From Nocardioidaceae bacterium (GTDB lineage: Bacteria; Actinomycetota; Actinomycetes; Propionibacteriales; Nocardioidaceae), in the NCBI GenBank assembly GCA_029266455.1, contig JAQSWV010000003.1:62001-126000 (forward strand): a DNA stretch of 64,000 nt, written 5' to 3'. This document shows, piece by piece, positions 23,229 through 34,080 of the stretch (positions are counted from its first letter, which is position 1; each line of letters begins with the position of its first letter). Made by a program: the position numbers and the translations under genes. The notes under the pieces are model-generated. The model was not told the DNA's origin and ran no database searches. It was given only the letters and a program-made list of their open reading frames with translations.

Positions 23229-23726
23229 GTGACCGCGAGCGATCCGTTCGGTGTGCCGGGAGCCGACTGGTCGCGGGTGAGCCCACGGCTCACCACCTTG
23301 CGCCGGGTTCTCCTCGTCGCGGCCGCGGTCGTCGTGCTCACGGCCGTGGTAGCCGTCGGGGTGCTCATGCCGTCGGTCCGCCTCGCGGCCGGCGCCGTCG
23401 GAGCTGCGGTGGTCGCGGTCTCTGCCTGGGGCTGGTGGTTCACCGCCCTCTCGGTGGCCGCGTGGGGCTGGGTCGAGCGCGATCAGGACCTCGTCGTCAC
23501 CCGGGGCCGCCTGTGGCGCCGAATCGACGTCGTCCCGTACGGCCGCATGCAGCTGGTCGACGTCACTGCCGGACCGCTCCAGCGGGCATTCGGGATCGCC
23601 ACGGTGCGGTTGCACACCGCTTCGCCCTCCAGCCGGGCCCATCTGCCCGGGCTGGCACCCCGGGACGCCTCCCGGCTCCGTGAGCAGCTCACCGAGCGCG
23701 GCGAGTCGCGCGCGGCGGGCCTGTGA
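23229..23726 (+). CDS. PH-domain (bPH2) membrane protein, YdbS-like
   Basis: This 165-residue protein has two hydrophobic helices (about residues 27-50 and 55-78) followed by a bacterial PH (YdbS/DUF304-type) domain with RGRLWRRIDVVPYGRMQLVDVTAGPLQRAFGIATVRLHTAS. The RMQLVDV and GPLQR signatures are typical. Function is unknown. The gene lies next to a two-domain relative and before the DUF2520-panC-coaX genes, where similar membrane genes occur in other actinobacteria (Rv3604c region). Its stop sits inside an 11-base repeat shared with the start of the next gene. Confidence 0.85.
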   Translation: MTASDPFGVPGADWSRVSPRLTTLRRVLLVAAAVVVLTAVVAVGVLMPSVRLAAGAVGAAVVAVSAWGWWFTALSVAAWGWVERDQDLVVTRGRLWRRIDVVPYGRMQLVDVTAGPLQRAFGIATVRLHTASPSSRAHLPGLAPRDASRLREQLTERGESRAAGL

Positions 23727-23751
23727 GCGGCCTGTGAGCGGCCCGTGAGCG
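23719..23751 (+). repeat. Three 11-base repeats over the stop/start junction of the PH genes
   Basis: GCCTGTGAGCG, GCCTGTGAGCG and GCCCGTGAGCG are head to tail. The first holds the stop codon of PH gene 1 (TGA 23724-23726) and the third holds the GTG start of PH gene 2 (23745). This suggests the junction arose by slippage. Confidence 0.85.
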
Positions 23752-25199
23752 GTCCGGCGGACGGGACCGGTGCACCCGGTTCTGCCAGTACCTCCCCCAC
23801 CGCCGACGAGGGTCGCCTGCAGCGGGTGCATCCCCTCTCACCGCTGCTGCGCGGGGGCATCGTCGTGGTGGCCATGCTGGTCGCGGGCGGCCGGCAGCTG
23901 CTGGAGGGCGGCACGCTCGACTGGCCGCTGCTGGGCGTGGGCGCCGTGGTGGTGGCGGTCGTGGCCTGGGGGGCCCTGAGCTGGTGGGTGATGCGCTTCC
24001 GGATCGGTACGCAGACGCTGCTGATCGAGAGCGGCATCCTGGTCCGGCGATCCCGCCGGATCCGTCTCGACCGCGTGCAGGCCGTCGAGGTGCAGCAGCC
24101 GTTCCTCGCCCGGTTGCTGGGCATGGCCGAGCTGGCGATCGAGACGGCCGGAAGCGGGACCGAGGCGACCCTCGCGTACCTGCGCGTGGACCACGCCCGC
24201 CGGTTGCGGGCCGAGCTGCTCGAGCGCGCCGCAGCGGCCGGCAGCCCGTCCCGGTCCGGAGCGGCTCCCGCACCCGGGTCCGCTCCGGTCGCCGTGACGG
24301 ACGGCGCCGGTGGGGAGCCAGGGCTGCATCAGGCCCCTGTCGATCCGCTGGGGGACCGGGTGGTCGCGCCGGAGCCGGCACCGGAGCTGCTGCACCAGGT
24401 TCCCCCTGGCCGGCTGATGCTGAGCCAGCTGGTGCGCACGGCACCGCTGGTCATGGTCGTGCTGGGACTCGTCGGAGTGACGGTGATGCTCGCGCTCGAT
24501 CAGCCGATGGGCATCACCGTGCTGGTGCCGGCGGCCATCGCCGTGGCGAGTGTGGTCGGCAACGGCTTCGTGGGGCAGTACAACTTCCGGCTCAGCCGCA
24601 CCAGCCAGCGGCTCGCGGTCCATGCCGGTCTGTTCGACGTCCGTAGCCAGTCCATCCCCGTCGGTCGCATCCAGGGTGTCGTGGTGCACGAGCCACTCGT
24701 GTGGCGGTGGCTCGGATGGTGCGAGGTCAAGGTCACGGTCGCCGGGGTCGAGCAGCACAGTGATGACAGCGCTCGGCTGACCACCACCTTGCTGCCGGTG
24801 ATCGACCGGGGAGCAGGTGTCCGGCTGACCGGCAGCGTCCTCGGCGACAGCGACCTGGTCGGCGCGCCGCTCCAGCCGGGACCCCCGGCCGCGCGCTGGC
24901 TCGACCCCCTCGGCTGGCGGATCCAGGCAGTGGGTGTCGGTGCCGACCTGCTGGCGACCCGCCGCGGAGTCCTCGACCTGCGGACCGATGTGGCGCCGCG
25001 GCACAAGGTGCAGTCCGTCGGGCTGCGGCAGGGACCGGTTCAGCGTCGGCTCGGGCTGGCGACCCTGCACATCCATCTCCCGCCCGGCCCGGTCGACCCG
25101 GAGGCCCGGCACCGTCAGGCAGACGAGGTCTGGGCGCTGGCGCTGTCGGCCTCGGCGGCGGTCGCGCCGGCTCCCGGCGTACCTGGCGACGCACCGTGA
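23745..25199 (+). CDS. PH-domain (bPH2) membrane protein with repeated PH domains, YdbT-like
   Basis: This 484-residue protein has paired hydrophobic helices followed by PH units. The first unit shows ESGILVRRSRRIRLDRVQAVEVQQPFLARLLG. The second shows HAGLFDVRSQSIPVGRIQGVVVHEPLVWRWLGW, and a third, partial unit near the C-terminus shows LRTDVAPRHKVQSVGLRQGPVQRRLG. The R(I/V)Q signature recurs in each. YdbS/YdbT pairs are widespread, and in Bacillus they are linked to resistance to some antimicrobial peptides; whether that applies here is unknown. GTG 23745 is 18 bases after the upstream stop. Confidence 0.85.
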   Translation: MSGPADGTGAPGSASTSPTADEGRLQRVHPLSPLLRGGIVVVAMLVAGGRQLLEGGTLDWPLLGVGAVVVAVVAWGALSWWVMRFRIGTQTLLIESGILVRRSRRIRLDRVQAVEVQQPFLARLLGMAELAIETAGSGTEATLAYLRVDHARRLRAELLERAAAAGSPSRSGAAPAPGSAPVAVTDGAGGEPGLHQAPVDPLGDRVVAPEPAPELLHQVPPGRLMLSQLVRTAPLVMVVLGLVGVTVMLALDQPMGITVLVPAAIAVASVVGNGFVGQYNFRLSRTSQRLAVHAGLFDVRSQSIPVGRIQGVVVHEPLVWRWLGWCEVKVTVAGVEQHSDDSARLTTTLLPVIDRGAGVRLTGSVLGDSDLVGAPLQPGPPAARWLDPLGWRIQAVGVGADLLATRRGVLDLRTDVAPRHKVQSVGLRQGPVQRRLGLATLHIHLPPGPVDPEARHRQADEVWALALSASAAVAPAPGVPGDAP

Positions 25200-27229: not shown

Positions 27230-28033
27230 ATGCTGCTCTGTGTCGACATCGGCAACAGCCACACGGTGCTGGGTCTCTTCGACGGCGACCGGCTCGAGCA
27301 CCGGTGGCGCGTGACGACCGAGGAGCGACGCACCGCTGACGAGTGGTTCGTGCTGCTGCGCGGGCTGCTCCGCGGGGCCACCGACCCGACGCACGAGGCG
27401 CCGCCCGGCAGCCTGGGCGTGCCCACGACCGGTATCGCTGTCTGCTCGACGGTCCCGATGGTCCTGCACGAGGTGCGCCAGGTGCTGTCGCGCTACTTCG
27501 ACGACGTGCCGCACCTGGTGGTGGAGCCCGGCGTCCGTACCGGGGTCCCGGTGCTGATGGACAACCCCCGCGAGGTCGGCACCGACCGCATCGTCAACGC
27601 GCTGGCGGCCTTCCACCTGTACGAGGGCCCGTGCATCGTCGTCGACGTGGGCACGGCCACCACGTTCGACGTGGTGAGCGTCCGCGGCGAGTACGTCGGC
27701 GGCGCCATCGCGCCGGGCATCGAGATCTCGCTGGAGGCCCTCGGCCGGCGCGGCGCGCAGCTGCGGCGCGTCGAGGTGGTGCGCCCCCGCTCGGTGATCG
27801 CGAAGAACACGGTGGAGGCGCTGCAGTCGGGCGCCGTCTACGGCTTCGCGTCCCAGGTCGACGGGGTGGTGACCCGCATCGTCGACGAGCTCGGTGTCGC
27901 CCGGTCGGACCTGACCGTCGTGGCCACGGGAGGTCTGGCGCCCGTGGTGCTCGACGAGTGCACCCAGGTCGACGTGCACGAGCCGTCCCTCACCCTGATC
28001 GGCCTACGGCTGGTCTTCGAGCGCAGCTGCTGA
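27230..28033 (+). CDS. coaX: Type III pantothenate kinase
   Basis: CoaX phosphorylates pantothenate in the first step of coenzyme A synthesis and is not feedback-inhibited like CoaA. The 267-residue product has the ASKHA-fold motifs MLLCVDIGNSHTVLGLFDG, DRIVNALAAF, VDVGTATTFDVVS, and GAIAPGIEISLEALG, with VVATGGLAPVV near the end. ATG 27230 is 4 bases after panC, consistent with one transcript. lysS has its own promoter signal directly after the coaX stop. Confidence 0.95.
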   Translation: MLLCVDIGNSHTVLGLFDGDRLEHRWRVTTEERRTADEWFVLLRGLLRGATDPTHEAPPGSLGVPTTGIAVCSTVPMVLHEVRQVLSRYFDDVPHLVVEPGVRTGVPVLMDNPREVGTDRIVNALAAFHLYEGPCIVVDVGTATTFDVVSVRGEYVGGAIAPGIEISLEALGRRGAQLRRVEVVRPRSVIAKNTVEALQSGAVYGFASQVDGVVTRIVDELGVARSDLTVVATGGLAPVVLDECTQVDVHEPSLTLIGLRLVFERSC

Positions 28034-28037
28034 CCCG

Positions 28038-28043
28038 TAACCT
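28038..28043 (+). promoter_or_regulatory. Leaderless -10 hexamer TAACCT for lysS
   Basis: TAACCT plus 7 bases leads to ATG 28051. It lies in the 17-base gap after coaX. Confidence 0.6.
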
Positions 28044-28050
28044 CCCTGCC

Positions 28051-29556
28051 ATGACCGACCGGACCGTGCCCGCTGCCGCTGACGACGTCTCGGAGCAGGA
28101 ACGGGTCCGGCGTGACAAGCGAGCGCGGCTGATCGAGTCGGGGGCCGGGGCGTACCCGATCACGGTGCCCCGCACGCACACGCTGCGGGAGGTGCGCGAG
28201 ACCTACGCCGGCGCGGGGCTCGAGCCCGGCTCGGGCACCGGAGCGCAGGTCGCTGTCACGGGGCGGGTCATCTTCCAGCGCAACACCGGCAAGCTCTGCT
28301 TCGTCCGCCTCCGGGAGGGCGACGGCACCGAGCTGCAGGTGATGCTGTCGCTCGCGGAGCTGGGCCAGCAGGGCCTGGACGAGTACAAGGCGCTGGTCGA
28401 CATCGGCGACCACCTCGCAGTTCAGGGCGAGGTGGTGATGAGCCGTCGAGGCGAGCTCTCCGTGCAGGCGCGGCAGTGGCAGATGGCGGCGAAGGCGCTT
28501 CGCCCACTGCCCAACGAGCACCGTCCGCTGTCCGACGAGGCGCGCGTCAGGTACCGCTATCTCGACATGATCGTGCGCCCGCAGGCGCGCGAGATGGTGC
28601 GGGCCAAGGCCACACTGCTGCGGGCGCTGCGCGAGACCCTCGACGGCCAGGGCTTCATCGAGGTCGAGACGCCGGTGCTGCAGCTCACGAACGGCGGGGC
28701 GGCGGCACGGCCGTTCCGCACCCACCTGAACGCGTTCGACCAGGACATGCTGCTGCGGATCGCGCTCGAGCTCGACCTCAAACGGGCGATGGTGGGCGGC
28801 GTGGAGCGGGTCTACGAGATCGGCAAGACGTTCCGGAACGAGGGCATCGACTCCACCCACGCAGCCGAGTTCTCGATGCTCGAGGCATACCAGGCCTATG
28901 GCGACTACGAGTCGATGATGGTGCTGTCCCGCGACCTGGTGCTGGCCGCCGCCCGCGCACTGGGCCGGACCGTCGTGCCCGCCAGGGACGGCACCGAGAT
29001 CGACCTCGAGGCACCCTGGCGGCGCGCGAGCCTGCTCGCCCTGGTCAGCGCCGCCGTGGACGACGAGGTCACCGTCGACACCGACGTCGCCACGCTGCGT
29101 CGGCACGCCGCGGCCAGGGAGGTCGCCCTGGAGCCCGGCTGGGGGGCCGCCGAGGTGCTGGTGGAGCTGTACGAGCAGCTCGTCGAGGAGGATCTCGTCC
29201 AACCGACTTTCGTCTGCGACTATCCGGAGGCGGTCCGGCCGCTGGCAAAGCCGCACCGGTCACTGCCTGGTTTGAACGAGGCATTCGACCTCATCATCAA
29301 TGGCGTCGAGCTGGCGCCCGCCTATTCCGAGCTCAACGACCCCGTCGTGCAACGGGAGCGGTTGACGGAGCAGGCACTTCGGGCCGCTGCCGGCGACCCT
29401 GAGGCCAACGAACTCGACGAGGTGTTTCTTCGTGCACTGGAACATGGTCTGCCTCCTGCCGGCGGCCTGGGGATGGGCATCGACCGTCTGCTCATGCTGT
29501 TGATGGGCACGGGAATCCGCGAGGCAATCCTGTTTCCGTTGTTGCGTCCGGTCTGA
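28051..29556 (+). CDS. lysS: Lysyl-tRNA synthetase, class II
   Basis: LysRS charges tRNA(Lys). The 501-residue protein has an N-terminal OB-fold anticodon-binding domain (VAVTGRVIFQRNTGKLCFVRLREGDGTELQVML) and the class II core. Motif 2 is KTFRNEGIDSTHAAEFSMLEAYQAY and motif 3 is GLGMGIDRLLMLLMG. In motif 2 the usual HNPEFT is replaced by HAAEFS, which I recall from one actinobacterial LysRS subgroup. The coaX-lysS-lsr2-clpC order matches Mycobacterium. The last 300 bases are visibly less GC-rich than the rest of the gene. Confidence 0.93.
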   Translation: MTDRTVPAAADDVSEQERVRRDKRARLIESGAGAYPITVPRTHTLREVRETYAGAGLEPGSGTGAQVAVTGRVIFQRNTGKLCFVRLREGDGTELQVMLSLAELGQQGLDEYKALVDIGDHLAVQGEVVMSRRGELSVQARQWQMAAKALRPLPNEHRPLSDEARVRYRYLDMIVRPQAREMVRAKATLLRALRETLDGQGFIEVETPVLQLTNGGAAARPFRTHLNAFDQDMLLRIALELDLKRAMVGGVERVYEIGKTFRNEGIDSTHAAEFSMLEAYQAYGDYESMMVLSRDLVLAAARALGRTVVPARDGTEIDLEAPWRRASLLALVSAAVDDEVTVDTDVATLRRHAAAREVALEPGWGAAEVLVELYEQLVEEDLVQPTFVCDYPEAVRPLAKPHRSLPGLNEAFDLIINGVELAPAYSELNDPVVQRERLTEQALRAAAGDPEANELDEVFLRALEHGLPPAGGLGMGIDRLLMLLMGTGIREAILFPLLRPV

Positions 29557-30329: not shown

Positions 30330-32831
30330 ATGTTCGAGAGATTCACCGACAGGGCACGTCGGGTCGTGGTCCTGGCGCAAGAAGAAGCCCGGATGCTCAG
30401 CCACAACTACATCGGCACCGAGCACATCCTGCTCGGCCTGATCCACGAGGGCGAGGGTGTCGCCGCCAAGGCGCTCGAGAGCCTCGGGATCTCACTGGAG
30501 GCCGTACGTGCGCAGGTCGAGGACATCATCGGACAGGGCCAGCAGGCCCCGAGCGGACACATTCCCTTCACTCCCCGTGCCAAGAAGGTGCTCGAGCTCA
30601 GCCTGCGCGAGGCGCTGCAGCTGGGCCACAACTACATCGGCACCGAGCACATCCTGCTGGGTCTGATCCGCGAGGGCGAGGGTGTCGCCGCGCAGGTCCT
30701 GGTCAAGCTGGGCGCTGACCTCAACCGGGTCCGGCAGCAGGTCATCCAGCTGCTCAGCGGGTACCAGGGCAAGGAGACCGCCGCGTCGGGCGCCGCCACG
30801 GAGAGTGGTGCGCCCAGCAGCTCCCTGGTCCTGGACCAGTTCGGGCAGAACCTCACCCAGGCCGCTCGCGAGGGCAAGCTCGACCCGGTCATCGGTCGCG
30901 ACAAGGAGATCGAGCGGGTCATGCAGGTGCTGTCCCGCCGTACCAAGAACAACCCGGTGCTGATCGGGGAGCCCGGCGTCGGCAAGACCACGATCGTGCA
31001 GGGCCTGGCGCAGGACATTGTCCGGGGAGACGTGCCCGAGACGCTCAAGGACAAGCAGATCTACACCCTCGACCTGGGTGCTCTGGTCGCCGGCTCGCGC
31101 TACCGCGGTGACTTCGAGGAGCGCCTCAAGAAGGTGCTCAAGGAGATCCGCACCCGCGGCGACATCGTGCTGTTCATCGACGAGATCCACACCCTCGTCG
31201 GCGCAGGTGCGGCCGAGGGCGCGATCGACGCCGCCAGCATCCTCAAGCCCATGCTGGCGCGTGGTGAGCTGCAGACCATCGGCGCGACCACTCTGGACGA
31301 GTACCGCAAGCACCTAGAGAAGGACGCCGCGCTGGAGCGGCGCTTCCAGCCGATCCAGGTCGCCGAGCCGACCATCGCGCACACCATCGAGATGCTCAAG
31401 GGCCTGCGTGACCGCTATGAGGCGCACCACCGGGTGACCATCACCGACCAGGCTCTCGTGTCCGCCGCGACCTTCGCCGACCGCTACATCTCGGACCGGT
31501 TCCTCCCGGACAAGGCAATCGACCTCATCGACGAGGCGGGGTCGAGGCTGCGCATCCGCCGGATGACCGCACCGCCGGACCTGCGGAGGTTCGACGACCA
31601 GATCGCCGACGTGCGCAAGCGCAAGGAAGGCGCCATCGACGCGCAGGACTTCGAGGCTGCGGCCTCGCTGCGCGATGAGGAGAAGAAGCTCATCGGTGCG
31701 CGCTCCGAGCGCGAGAAGCAGTGGAAGGCCGGCGACATGGACGTGGTCGCCGAGGTCGACGAGGAGCTGATCGCCGAGGTTCTCGCCACCGCGACGGGCA
31801 TCCCCATCGTGAAGCTCACCGAGGAGGAGTCGAGCCGGCTGCTCCGCATGGAGGACGAGCTGCACAAGCGTGTCATCGGTCAGGACGAGGCGATCAAGGC
31901 GCTGTCCCGGGCCATCCGGCGTACCCGCGCCGGGCTCAAGGACCCGCGACGCCCCGGCGGCTCGTTCATCTTCGCCGGTCCGTCCGGCGTCGGTAAGACG
32001 TGGCTGTCCAAGGCACTGGCCAACTTCCTGTTCGGCGATGACGACGCGCTCATCCAGCTGGACATGAGCGAGTTCTCCGAGAAGCACACGGTCTCGCGGC
32101 TGTTCGGGTCGCCCCCCGGCTATGTCGGGTACGAGGAGGGTGGCCAGCTCACCGAGAAGGTGCGGCGCAAGCCGTTCTCGGTGGTCCTCTTCGACGAGAT
32201 CGAGAAGGCGCACCCGGACATCTTCAACTCGCTGCTGCAGATCCTGGAAGAGGGGCGGCTCACCGACTCCCAGGGCCGTGTCATCGACTTCAAGAACACC
32301 GTGATCATCATGACCACGAACCTCGGGGCGAGAGACATCGCGAAGGGCGTCAACCTGGGGTTCCAGCAGGCCGGCGACTCCGCCGGGTCGTACGAGCGGA
32401 TGAAGGCGAAGGTCGGCGAGGAGCTCAAGCAGCACTTCCGGCCGGAGTTCCTCAACCGCGTCGACGAGATGATCGTCTTCCCGCCGCTGACCCAGGACGA
32501 GATCGTCCGGATGGTCGATTTCATGCTGGCCGGTGTGGAGATGCGGCTGAAGGACAAGGACATGGCGCTGGAGCTCACGCCGGCTGCCAAGGTCGTCCTG
32601 GCCCAGCGAGGCTTCGACCCCGTGCTTGGTGCGCGTCCGCTGCGCCGTACCGTCCAGCGCGAGATCGAGGACCAGCTGGCCGAGAAGCTGCTGTACGGCG
32701 AGGTTCGCCCGGGTCAGATCGTGCTGGTCGACGTGGACGGCGACGGGCCGGACGCCGCCTTCACGTTCAGCGGCACCCCCAAGGCCGAGCTGCCCGACGT
32801 CGCCCCAGTGGAGGCCAGCGCGGCCGAGTGA
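30330..32831 (+). CDS. clpC: ATP-dependent Clp protease ATP-binding subunit ClpC
   Basis: ClpC is the hexameric unfoldase that feeds substrates to ClpP. The 833-residue protein starts [20 protein letters not shown], with two N-domain repeats containing [13 protein letters not shown]. Walker A of D1 (GEPGVGKT) starts near 213, and the UVR-type middle domain holds [20 protein letters not shown]. Walker A of D2 (GPSGVGKT) starts near 550. The residue after the D2 Walker A is Trp ([10 protein letters not shown]), where Glu is usual. ATG 30330 is chosen from homologues and AAGGAG upstream; a GTG at 30309 is in frame. A large hairpin and repeats follow. Confidence 0.96.
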
Positions 32832-32856
32832 CCCGCCCCCACCCACCACCCACCCC

Positions 32857-32900
32857 CATCATCCGCGCAGTACGCCGATCGGCGGACTGCGCGGATGATG
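32857..32900 (+). terminator. Long hairpin after clpC
   Basis: Two 22-base arms (32857-32878 and 32879-32900) are reverse complements with one mismatch, with no spacer between them. C-rich and G-rich flanks extend the pairing. It begins 25 bases after the clpC stop and is a likely terminator or 3'-end stabiliser without a U-run. Confidence 0.6.
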
Positions 32901-33045
32901 TGTGTGGGGGTGTGGGCCGTCGTGTCGTCGGCGTACTGCGCGGATGATGCCTGTGGGGGTGCGGGGTGTCGTCGGCGTACTGCGCGGATGATGTCCGGTG
33001 GGGGTGTGGGCCGCGCCGTGCCGTCGGCGTACTGCGCGGATGATG
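32879..33045 (+). repeat. Four direct copies of a 22-base motif, with a fifth inverted copy
   Basis: The motif with core ACTGCGCGGATGATG starts at 32879, 32928, 32972 and 33024, spaced 49, 44 and 52 bases apart. The inverted copy is at 32857-32878. The gaps between copies also resemble each other (GTGGGGGTGTGGG). No frame is conserved across them. This is a clustered intergenic repeat, not a CRISPR array. Confidence 0.85.
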
Positions 33046-33077
33046 GGGTGGGGGTGGGGTCAGCTGAGGGAGGGGGC

Positions 33078-33415
33078 TCAGTGGGTCGTGGTGCTGAGGT
33101 TGACCGCCACCACGCCGGCGATGATGGCCACCAGGCCTGCTGCCTTGACCGCATCGAGTCGCTCGCCGAGGAACATGAGACCGACGATCGCGACCAGGGC
33201 GGTGCCGGCTCCGGACCACACCGCGTACGCCACTGACACCGGGATCTGGCGGACCACCAGGGCCAGCAGCCAGATCGACACCGCGTAGCCGCAGATGACG
33301 AGCAGGGCCCAACCGGGCTGGGTGAACCCCGCGGTACGCGGAAGAGAGCCGCTGTGGCGCCGACCTCCACGACGATCGCCACGGCCAGCAACAGCATCGC
33401 CAGACCCATGGGCAC
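33078..33415 (-). pseudogene. SMR family multidrug efflux protein, frameshifted
   Basis: The small multidrug resistance fold is split over two minus-strand frames. From GTG 33415 or ATG 33409 the first frame reads MGLAMLLLAVAIVVEVGATAALFR, with the conserved membrane Glu. The second frame reads GFTQPGWALLVICGYAVSIWLLA, then IPVSVAYAVWSGAGTALVAIVG, to the stop at 33078. The frames meet at a GGGG run (CCCC at 33327-33330 on the plus strand), where one added base would restore a normal protein of about 110 residues. It may be a true mutation, a phase-variable site or a sequence error. It is divergent from a TetR gene with twin operators. Confidence 0.85.
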
Positions 33416-33443
33416 GCTCCGTTCTCCCGGTTCCGCTCACTCA

Positions 33444-33459
33444 TGTAGCACTCGCTACG
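33444..33459. promoter_or_regulatory. TetR-type operator O1
   Basis: TGTAGCACTCGCTACG, a GTAGC-N4-GCTAC inverted repeat, lies in the SMR/TetR intergenic gap. It is 27 bases from O2, centre to centre. Confidence 0.7.
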
Positions 33460-33470
33460 TCCACGTCGAC

Positions 33471-33486
33471 TGTAGCACTCGCTACA
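33471..33486. promoter_or_regulatory. TetR-type operator O2
   Basis: TGTAGCACTCGCTACA is a TGTAGC-N4-GCTACA inverted repeat with perfect 6-base arms. It overlaps the TetR gene's -10 hexamer, so repression of the regulator's own promoter is expected. Confidence 0.75.
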
Positions 33487-33488
33487 GT
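33483..33488 (+). promoter_or_regulatory. Leaderless -10 hexamer TACAGT for the tetR gene
   Basis: TACAGT plus 7 bases leads to ATG 33496. It overlaps operator O2. Confidence 0.6.
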
Positions 33489-33495
33489 GAGGCGG

Positions 33496-34080
33496 ATGAG
33501 CACGGAAGGTGGCATGGTCCGGACGAACGAGCGCCGCGAGGCGCTGGCGGAGTCGGCCACCGACTATGTCCTCGATCATGGCATCGCGGGCCTCAGCCTG
33601 CGTCCGCTGGCAGCCGCGATCGGCACCAGCGACCGGATGCTGGTCTACCACTTCGGCAGCAAGGACGCCCTGGTTGCGCTGGTGATCGAGCGCAGCAACG
33701 CCCGGTCGGTGGCCGCGTTGCGCGCCATTCCGGCCGCCTCGTCGCCGCGGGCCGCGGTCACCGCGCTGTGGGAGCAGTGGCAGCAGCCGGTGGTCGCCCG
33801 CTGCCTACGGGTCTATGCGCAGACTGCTGCGCTCGGGCTGCTCGGGCAGGAGCCGTACCTGTCGGCCGCCCGCCGCAGCAACCAGCTCTGGACAGCCGCG
33901 GTGTCGGACCTCCTGGTGCGCAGCGGTGTCCCGTCGCGGCGCGCGCGGCGGGCCAGCGAGCTGGTCGATGCCACGCTGTTCGGACTGCTGCTCGACCAGC
34001 CCCTCGAGGCCGGGTCACGGCACGTCGGAGTCGTCGTGCGCGATCTCGCCGACGCGGTGGAGCGGATCAGCAAGGTCTGA
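33496..34080 (+). CDS. TetR/AcrR family repressor
   Basis: This 194-residue protein has an N-terminal helix-turn-helix with YVLDHGIAGLSLRPLAAAIGTSDRMLVYHFGSKDALV, then a variable ligand-binding domain. It is divergent from the SMR efflux remnant, and two copies of a 16-base palindrome lie between them, so it very probably controls that exporter and itself. ATG 33496 is set by the -10 spacing; ATG 33514 is another in-frame choice. Its 3' end overlaps the convergent mutY 3' end by 66 bases. The inducer is unknown. Confidence 0.88.
   Translation: MSTEGGMVRTNERREALAESATDYVLDHGIAGLSLRPLAAAIGTSDRMLVYHFGSKDALVALVIERSNARSVAALRAIPAASSPRAAVTALWEQWQQPVVARCLRVYAQTAALGLLGQEPYLSAARRSNQLWTAAVSDLLVRSGVPSRRARRASELVDATLFGLLLDQPLEAGSRHVGVVVRDLADAVERISKV

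What the first reader, a model, noticed from the sequence alone, without database searches (positions are those of the whole stretch)
33078..33496. Broken SMR exporter beside an intact TetR with twin operators
The exporter is split at a GGGG run (33327-33330) by what looks like a single missing base, while all SMR motifs survive in the two frames. Next to it, the regulator and two copies of TGTAGCACTCGCTAC remain intact, one covering the regulator's own -10. The decay is either very recent, switchable at the short G run, or a sequence error.
Basis: seen in the sequence. Interest (0 to 1): 0.5.

Follow-up and report, generated by a model that had tools for sequence, protein, structure and literature searches.

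The report
Recently frameshifted drug-pump gene beside repressor
In an actinobacterium the small drug-export pump of an otherwise common repressor-and-pump pair has been knocked out by a small frameshift that looks recent, while the repressor gene and its two DNA binding sites are still whole; this is ordinary gene decay, not a new system.

Summary
An SMR-type exporter gene (window 33409-33078, minus strand) is read in two frames, beside an intact divergent TetR gene and two identical 15-mers (33444-33458, 33471-33485). Among the 53 best-matching related loci, 48 have a single-frame SMR gene divergent from the TetR. In 48 of 48 the stretch from the TM1 glutamate to the Gly-Phe motif is 12 residues long; the window has 38 nt there instead of 36. 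The residues just before the GGGG run (Pro-Arg-Thr-Ala) are already read in the downstream frame. So the frame breaks at 33341-33348, in a CTCTCT run, as a net gain of two nucleotides. It is not a missing G. The window keeps 33 of 34 conserved SMR residues, so the loss looks recent. Twin GTAGC-N4-GCTAC sites recur in 41 of 48 intact relatives, so they are very probably true TetR operators. Best explanation: a recent slippage-type frameshift pseudogene in a conserved, ordinary actinobacterial TetR/SMR efflux module. An assembly or strain-mixture artefact is the main rival, because raw reads could not be seen. Switchability has no support beyond a short repeat. Low interest.

The parts
33344..33409 (-). 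Upstream-frame piece of the SMR gene: start ATG to the end of TM1, 22 residues, holding the conserved Glu of TM1
   Evidence: up to 82% identical to intact homologues over these 22 residues
33341..33348 (-). Place of the frame change: CTCTCT run (33343-33348); net +2 nt relative to intact homologues
   Evidence: E..GF distance 12 aa in 48 of 48 intact genes; 38 nt here. CTCTCT in 0 of 48
33078..33341 (-). Downstream-frame piece of the SMR gene (PRTAGFT... to the stop at 33078-33080), TM2-TM4
   Evidence: PF00893 71.7 bits; 126.4 bits to a profile of 46 intact genes, ninth lowest of 47
33327..33330 (-).
33444..33459 (.). Operator-like site 1 (TGTAGCACTCGCTACG), next to the SMR start
   Evidence: twin GTAGC-N4-GCTAC sites in 41 of 48 intact relatives
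33471..33486 (.). Operator-like site 2 (TGTAGCACTCGCTACA), next to the TetR start
33496..34080 (+). TetR-family repressor gene, intact (194 aa from ATG 33496; the alignment with homologues leaves ATG 33514 as a possible start)
32849..33056 (.). Cluster of intergenic repeats special to this genome, between clpC and the SMR stop (one inverted, four direct copies); not part of the module

Best explanation
The locus is a TetR / twin operator / SMR exporter module of a kind widespread in Nocardioidaceae and some other actinobacteria. The repressor binds two GTAGC-N4-GCTAC sites in the short divergent intergenic region, near both starts, and keeps pump and repressor low until a ligand (probably a cationic or hydrophobic compound) releases it; this part is inferred by homology. 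In this genome the only detectable SMR gene carries a net two-nucleotide gain in a CTCTCT run at the end of TM1. Such a gain is typical of strand slippage. It puts TM1 with its glutamate and TM2-TM4 in different frames, so no working four-helix pump should be made. The regulator and operators have not decayed and almost no other damage has built up, so the event is recent. Shown: the two frames, the length excess, conservation of the module and of the operators. Inferred: loss of function, repression, recency, slippage as the cause.
For: Two frames with SMR homology. 48 of the 53 best TetR-homologue loci have an intact divergent SMR gene, with fixed 12-residue E..GF spacing in 48 of 48 against 38 nt in the window. 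CTCTCT in 0 of 48. 33 of 34 conserved columns kept; downstream piece scores within the range of the intact genes (126.4 bits, range 100.4-146.1). GC by codon position 0.69/0.51/0.90 and 0.75/0.40/0.90 in the two pieces, as in coding DNA. Twin operators in 41, one in 6, none in 1 of the 48. Damaged or lost SMR partners also occur elsewhere: L077 in three frames, L076 with an internal deletion, L089 with no SMR remnant. Ten adjacent or overlapping same-strand ORF pairs in the window, including all six that overlap by more than 60 nt, are by Pfam different genes without a split domain, so the assembly does not look rich in frame errors.
Against: The assembly is a draft (128 contigs) and raw reads were not available. 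No second genome of the species was found; the only other same-genus genome held, G001, lacks both SMR and TetR matches. The near-perfect residue conservation would also fit a gene that is intact in the living cell.
Confidence: 0.75

Rival explanations
1. The gene is intact in the organism, and the frameshift is a sequencing or assembly error or a minority strain in a binned genome.
For: Draft of 128 contigs. 33 of 34 conserved residues kept. It is the genome's only SMR match, with regulator and operators kept.
Against: A dinucleotide gain in a non-homopolymer run is not the usual sequencing error (general knowledge). Ten same-strand ORF pairs of the window (20 of the 56 ORFs chosen) tested by Pfam show no split gene; the other 36 were not tested in this way.
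Confidence: 0.18
2. Switchable (phase-variable) exporter: slippage at the CT run turns the pump off and on in the population.
For: The lesion lies in a short tandem repeat and the rest of the gene is nearly undamaged.
Against: Only three CT units, far below usual contingency tracts (general knowledge). None of 48 intact relatives has the run, so there is no conserved switch.
Confidence: 0.04
3. Programmed ribosomal frameshifting makes a full pump from the two frames.
For: Both frames are open around the junction and the pieces fit end to end on the homologues.
Against: No X XXY YYZ heptamer between the Glu codon and the Gly codon. 48 of 48 intact relatives are in one frame.
Confidence: 0.02
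4. One reading: a single base lost from the GGGG run.
For: A GGGG run does lie within the stretch where both frames are open.
Against: That would imply a 13-residue spacing, not seen in any of 48, and would leave Pro-Arg-Thr-Ala before the Gly codon in the wrong frame.
Confidence: 0.01

Closest known systems
Mycobacterium tuberculosis Mmr (Rv3065) / Rv3066
   Same: A small multidrug efflux pump of an actinobacterium under a repressor; deletion or mutation of Rv3066 raises mmr strongly, over 100-fold in the mutants (PMC11537118, passages). That Rv3066 is of the TetR family and Mmr of the SMR family is recalled
   Different: Described there as an mmr-rv3066 operon; here the two genes diverge over twin sites. 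Sequence kinship of the two repressors was not tested directly
TetR/tetA and QacR/qacA type divergent repressor-pump pairs
   Same: Divergent TetR-family gene; for TetR two 15-bp palindromic operators between repressor and pump (PMC3511530, passages); intergenic distance well under 200 bp
   Different: The partner here is an SMR protein, not an MFS pump (class of TetA and QacA recalled); the pump gene is broken
NepAB SMR pump of Arthrobacter (Paenarthrobacter) nicotinovorans
   Same: SMR export in an actinobacterium (title of Ganas et al. 2007 seen in the reference list of PMC10813004; pump name and control by a TetR-type NepR recalled, not checked)
   Different: Two-component pump in nicotine catabolism; here a single SMR gene
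qacE-delta-1 and other damaged SMR genes
   Same: A damaged SMR gene that stays in the genome (recalled; the name qacEdelta1 appears among plasmid hits)
   Different: There the 3' end is replaced (recalled); here it is an internal frameshift in a gene on a large contig
EbrA repressor (PDB 3hta), the best-scoring efflux-pump regulator by name among solved structures
   Same: TetR-type N-terminal part matched, E 1.1e-7
   Different: Only profile positions 4-83 of 191 matched; the ligand-binding part is not matched by sequence

Membership tests
Small multidrug resistance (SMR) transporters, PF00893 | Sequence match above the curated cut-off | tested here: met
   71.7 bits, cut-off 23.7, in the downstream frame alone
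Small multidrug resistance (SMR) transporters, PF00893 | One continuous reading frame of about 105-110 residues with four helices | tested here: not met
   Two frames; profile positions 22-92 in one, TM1 in the other. So it is a remnant of an SMR gene, not a working member as read
Small multidrug resistance (SMR) transporters, PF00893 | Conserved Glu of TM1 and W-x-G motif of TM3 (roles recalled) | tested here: met
   Both present, in different frames; 33 of 34 columns conserved at 90% or more are kept
Small multidrug resistance (SMR) transporters, PF00893 | Proton-coupled export of cationic drugs | not testable with these tools
   Needs an experiment
TetR family repressors | TetR_N helix-turn-helix domain | tested here: met
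   PF00440 30.9 bits, cut-off 24
Divergent TetR-type repressor/pump module | Divergent genes less than 200 bp apart | tested here: met
   86 bp between ATG 33409(-) and ATG 33496(+)
Divergent TetR-type repressor/pump module | Two operator sites conserved between the genes in relatives | tested here: met
   41 of 48 intact loci with two GTAGC-N4-GCTAC sites, 6 with one, 1 with none
Divergent TetR-type repressor/pump module | Binding and ligand-relieved repression | not testable with these tools
   Needs gel shift or reporter tests
Phase-variable (contingency) gene | Repeat tract kept in relatives, with length variants | tested here: not met
   CTCTCT in 0 of 48 intact relatives; length variants within the species could not be seen

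The most novel reading that the evidence does not exclude
The pump of this module is an expendable, repeatedly discarded output. The TetR and its twin operators outlive it because the repressor keeps another job, or because slippage lets populations drop and regain the pump. Broken, deleted or missing SMR partners beside TetR genes in the window and in L077, L076 and L089 leave this open.
Probability: 0.06. Interest if true: 0.4.

Novelty: new member of a known kind. Interest (0 to 1): 0.15.

Why it matters
It corrects where and how the gene is broken, which changes what a resequencing check must look at. It also shows that the twin sites are a conserved signature of an actinobacterial TetR/SMR module. 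The remaining question, why the regulator outlives its pump, is modest. If the break is an artefact, the genome simply has an ordinary intact module.

Tried and rejected
Lesion at the GGGG run: rejected by fixed spacing in 48 of 48 intact genes and by the frame of Pro-Arg-Thr-Ala. Programmed frameshifting: no slippery heptamer in the stretch, and the 48 intact relatives are in one frame. Error-rich assembly: ten same-strand ORF pairs showed no split gene; this covers 20 of the 56 ORFs chosen, and that choice includes at least one wrong-strand ORF (27838-29256, opposite a lysyl-tRNA-synthetase-like frame). One pair, 23229-23726 and 23745-25199, has the same Pfam domain in both (one and three copies); I take it as two genes, from recalled ydbS/ydbT-like pairs. 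A wider regulon: only one further GTAGC-N4-GCTAC site in the genome, single, on another contig; its reversed-pattern control gave 19 places per strand, so that control is not composition-matched. Known RNA at the locus: none in Rfam at the gathering threshold. Promoter and terminator scan: nothing found. One search translated the TetR in a wrong frame and was not used. Paper searches: nothing in the listings shown (20 of 39, 12 of 12, 0, 12 of 205, 1 and 1 papers) was recognisably about this module or the repeat; the library holds open-licence papers only. No structure was predicted, because the case did not turn on it.

Full report
What is there. The window is contig 9, 62001-126000, of a draft actinobacterial genome (3.43 Mb in 128 contigs, 97% complete). 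Of the 53 loci with the best TetR matches, 38 bear names of Nocardioidaceae (family membership of the genera recalled). At 33078-33440 on the minus strand one frame matches the SMR family PF00893 at 71.7 bits, but only from profile position 22. The missing first helix, with the conserved glutamate, is read in the other frame from ATG 33409. It is the only PF00893 match in the genome. A TetR-family gene runs the other way from ATG 33496. The 86 bp between the two start codons hold two exact copies of TGTAGCACTCGCTAC, 27 bp apart.

Where the gene breaks. I collected loci with relatives of the TetR protein from the 84,980-species collection: 360 relatives found, best 80 kept. In the first 53 of these (L060-L112) an intact SMR gene, divergent from the TetR, is present in 48, a partial one in 1 and none in 4. 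In the last 27 (L113-L139) there is none. Two of the 48, L063 and L064, are identical copies in one genome. In 48 of 48 the distance from the TM1 glutamate to the Gly-Phe (or equivalent) motif is 12 residues. The window has 38 nt instead of 36. The residues Pro-Arg-Thr-Ala, which stand just before Gly-Phe-Thr in the window, are read in the downstream frame and match intact homologues such as ATALLPRTAGFT of L061. The upstream frame matches up to a leucine codon that ends at 33344. The frame change therefore lies at 33341-33348, at a CTCTCT run (33343-33348), with a net gain of two nucleotides; within the run its exact place cannot be told. On the gene's strand it comes before the GGGG run. None of the 48 intact genes has CTCTCT in this stretch, and 10 of 48 have GGGG there without harm.

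How old is the break. The two pieces, aligned apart to 46 intact genes (the 48 without the duplicate L064 and the distant L112), keep 33 of 34 columns that are at least 90% conserved. The one departure is Leu to Val near the end, at a column where 46 of 46 have Leu. The intact rows themselves depart at 0 to 5 of these columns. If one change in 34 is taken as neutral decay, the 95% upper bound is about 13.5% residue change at such sites since the break. The nearest homologues differ at about a third of the residues of the downstream piece, so the break looks much younger than the split from them. The downstream piece scores 126.4 bits against a profile of the intact genes, ninth lowest of 47 in a range of 100.4 to 146.1; the window was not in the profile. 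Codon-position GC is that of coding DNA in both pieces.

Error or real. Raw reads are not available to me. Against an error-rich assembly: a reading of the window by codon-position GC gave 56 ORFs. I put ten same-strand pairs of them, including all six that overlap by more than 60 nt, to Pfam. In each case the two are different genes and no domain is split between them; in one pair both carry the same domain, once and three times. A two-nucleotide gain in a CT run is also not the typical homopolymer error (general knowledge). For an artefact: the genome is a draft, the gene is otherwise nearly perfect, and no second genome of the species was found. The only other genome of the genus held, G001, lacks both genes. 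I put a real pseudogene at 0.75 and an artefact or strain mixture at 0.18.

The module. Twin sites GTAGC-N4-GCTAC occur in 41 of the 48 intact loci, one site in 6, none in 1, at 18-31 bp spacing. This, and not the window alone, makes the operator reading strong. Among relatives in the other collection, six of the same family (G011, G016, G022, G023, G028, G032) have a TetR match at E 1e-20 or better, and all six have an SMR gene beside it; several of these are the same genomes as loci. A seventh match, in G049 of another family of the order (38% identity), was not examined for its neighbour. In the whole genome the site pattern occurs at three places: the two here and one single site on contig 29. 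Genome-context work on TetR-family genes found that those closer than 200 bp to a divergent neighbour are most likely to regulate it, and TetR itself acts through two palindromes between the genes (PMC3511530, passages read). The same logic is the best account here: repressor on both sites, release by a ligand, expression of pump and repressor. Binding, ligand and pump function remain inferred.

Decay elsewhere. The pump is also damaged or lost beside some TetR genes: L077 (three frames), L076 (large internal deletion), L089 (no SMR remnant at E up to 1; a different gene follows the operators). L078 and L111 have no SMR neighbour and no convincing remnant. Two SMR copies in relatives fetched by DNA similarity are damaged too: L011 (frame break near the end) and L009 (a stop in place of the N-terminal part and an internal loss). 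Neither G014 (L011) nor G035 (L009) has a TetR match at E 1e-20. Some of these come from fragmented genomes, so part may be artefact. Loss of the pump is thus not unique to the window.

Results against my reading. The near-perfect conservation fits an artefact as well as a recent loss. The promoter scan found no sigma-70-type promoter in 32820-33620, so the claim that a site covers the regulator's -10 stays unproven; TACAGT at 33483-33488 overlaps the second site but was picked by eye. The reversed-pattern control for GTAGC-N4-GCTAC gave more matches than the pattern (19 against 3 per strand), and for the 14-mer at one mismatch 4 against 2, so genome-wide counts say little; the weight rests on the conservation in relatives.

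Comparison with the known. Repressor-controlled small multidrug pumps are known in actinobacteria. Rv3066 represses Mmr in M. tuberculosis (PMC11537118, passages), and an SMR pump works in nicotine catabolism in Arthrobacter (title only, in a reference list). By profile, the solved structures found match this TetR mainly in the N-terminal DNA-binding part, among them the EbrA repressor 3hta; a few, such as 2np5 and 7eqe, match over most of the length at weaker E-values. I saw no paper on this particular module in the listings, from a library of open-licence papers only and with only part of the hits shown. The finding is a new example of a known kind: a frameshift pseudogene in a known kind of module. 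Interest 0.15.

In passing. Between clpC and the exporter lies a cluster of a 23-base repeat. Its 16-base core occurs 65 times in this genome at up to one mismatch. It occurs not at all in the same-genus genome, once each in 3 of the 28 other relatives searched, and in this genome never as the reversed control. In 16 stretches examined, 7 of 49 copies overlap or touch the ORFs chosen by codon GC and the rest lie outside them, in clusters of mixed orientation (49 and 7 counted by hand from its output). No Y1 transposase of the REP-associated kind was found by PF01797. It is unexplained.

Noticed in passing
window 32849-33056, and 65 places genome-wide (contigs C1, C2, C9, C12, C13, C17, C26, C29, C37, C53, C55, C58, C59, C71, C74, C80, C90, C91, C98, C126, C127): Dispersed, mostly intergenic repeat with core GTAnTGCGCGGATGAT, often in clusters of 2-5 about 20-115 bp apart and in mixed orientation: 65 copies here at up to 1 mismatch, 0 in the same-genus genome, 0 for the reversed control (stretches read). 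No PF01797 transposase in the genome. Unexplained.
   Followed up: partly
L077, L076, L089 (Streptomyces and Amycolatopsis): TetR gene and twin operators present while the divergent SMR gene is shattered, internally deleted or gone; the next gene is of another kind.
   Followed up: partly
L113-L139: More distant TetR relatives (31-43% identity): 25 of 27 loci have at least one GTAGC-N4-GCTAC site but none has an SMR neighbour, so the site type is wider than the SMR module. Their partner genes were not identified.
   Followed up: no
L009 (unnamed relative G035): SMR gene with a stop in place of its N-terminal part and an internal loss; a nearby string read by eye resembles the end of a TetR gene, as if a deletion had joined the two.
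   Followed up: partly
L063 and L064: Streptomyces sp. V4I2 holds two identical SMR copies of the module, near opposite ends of one 10.7-Mb contig, perhaps in terminal repeats.
   Followed up: no
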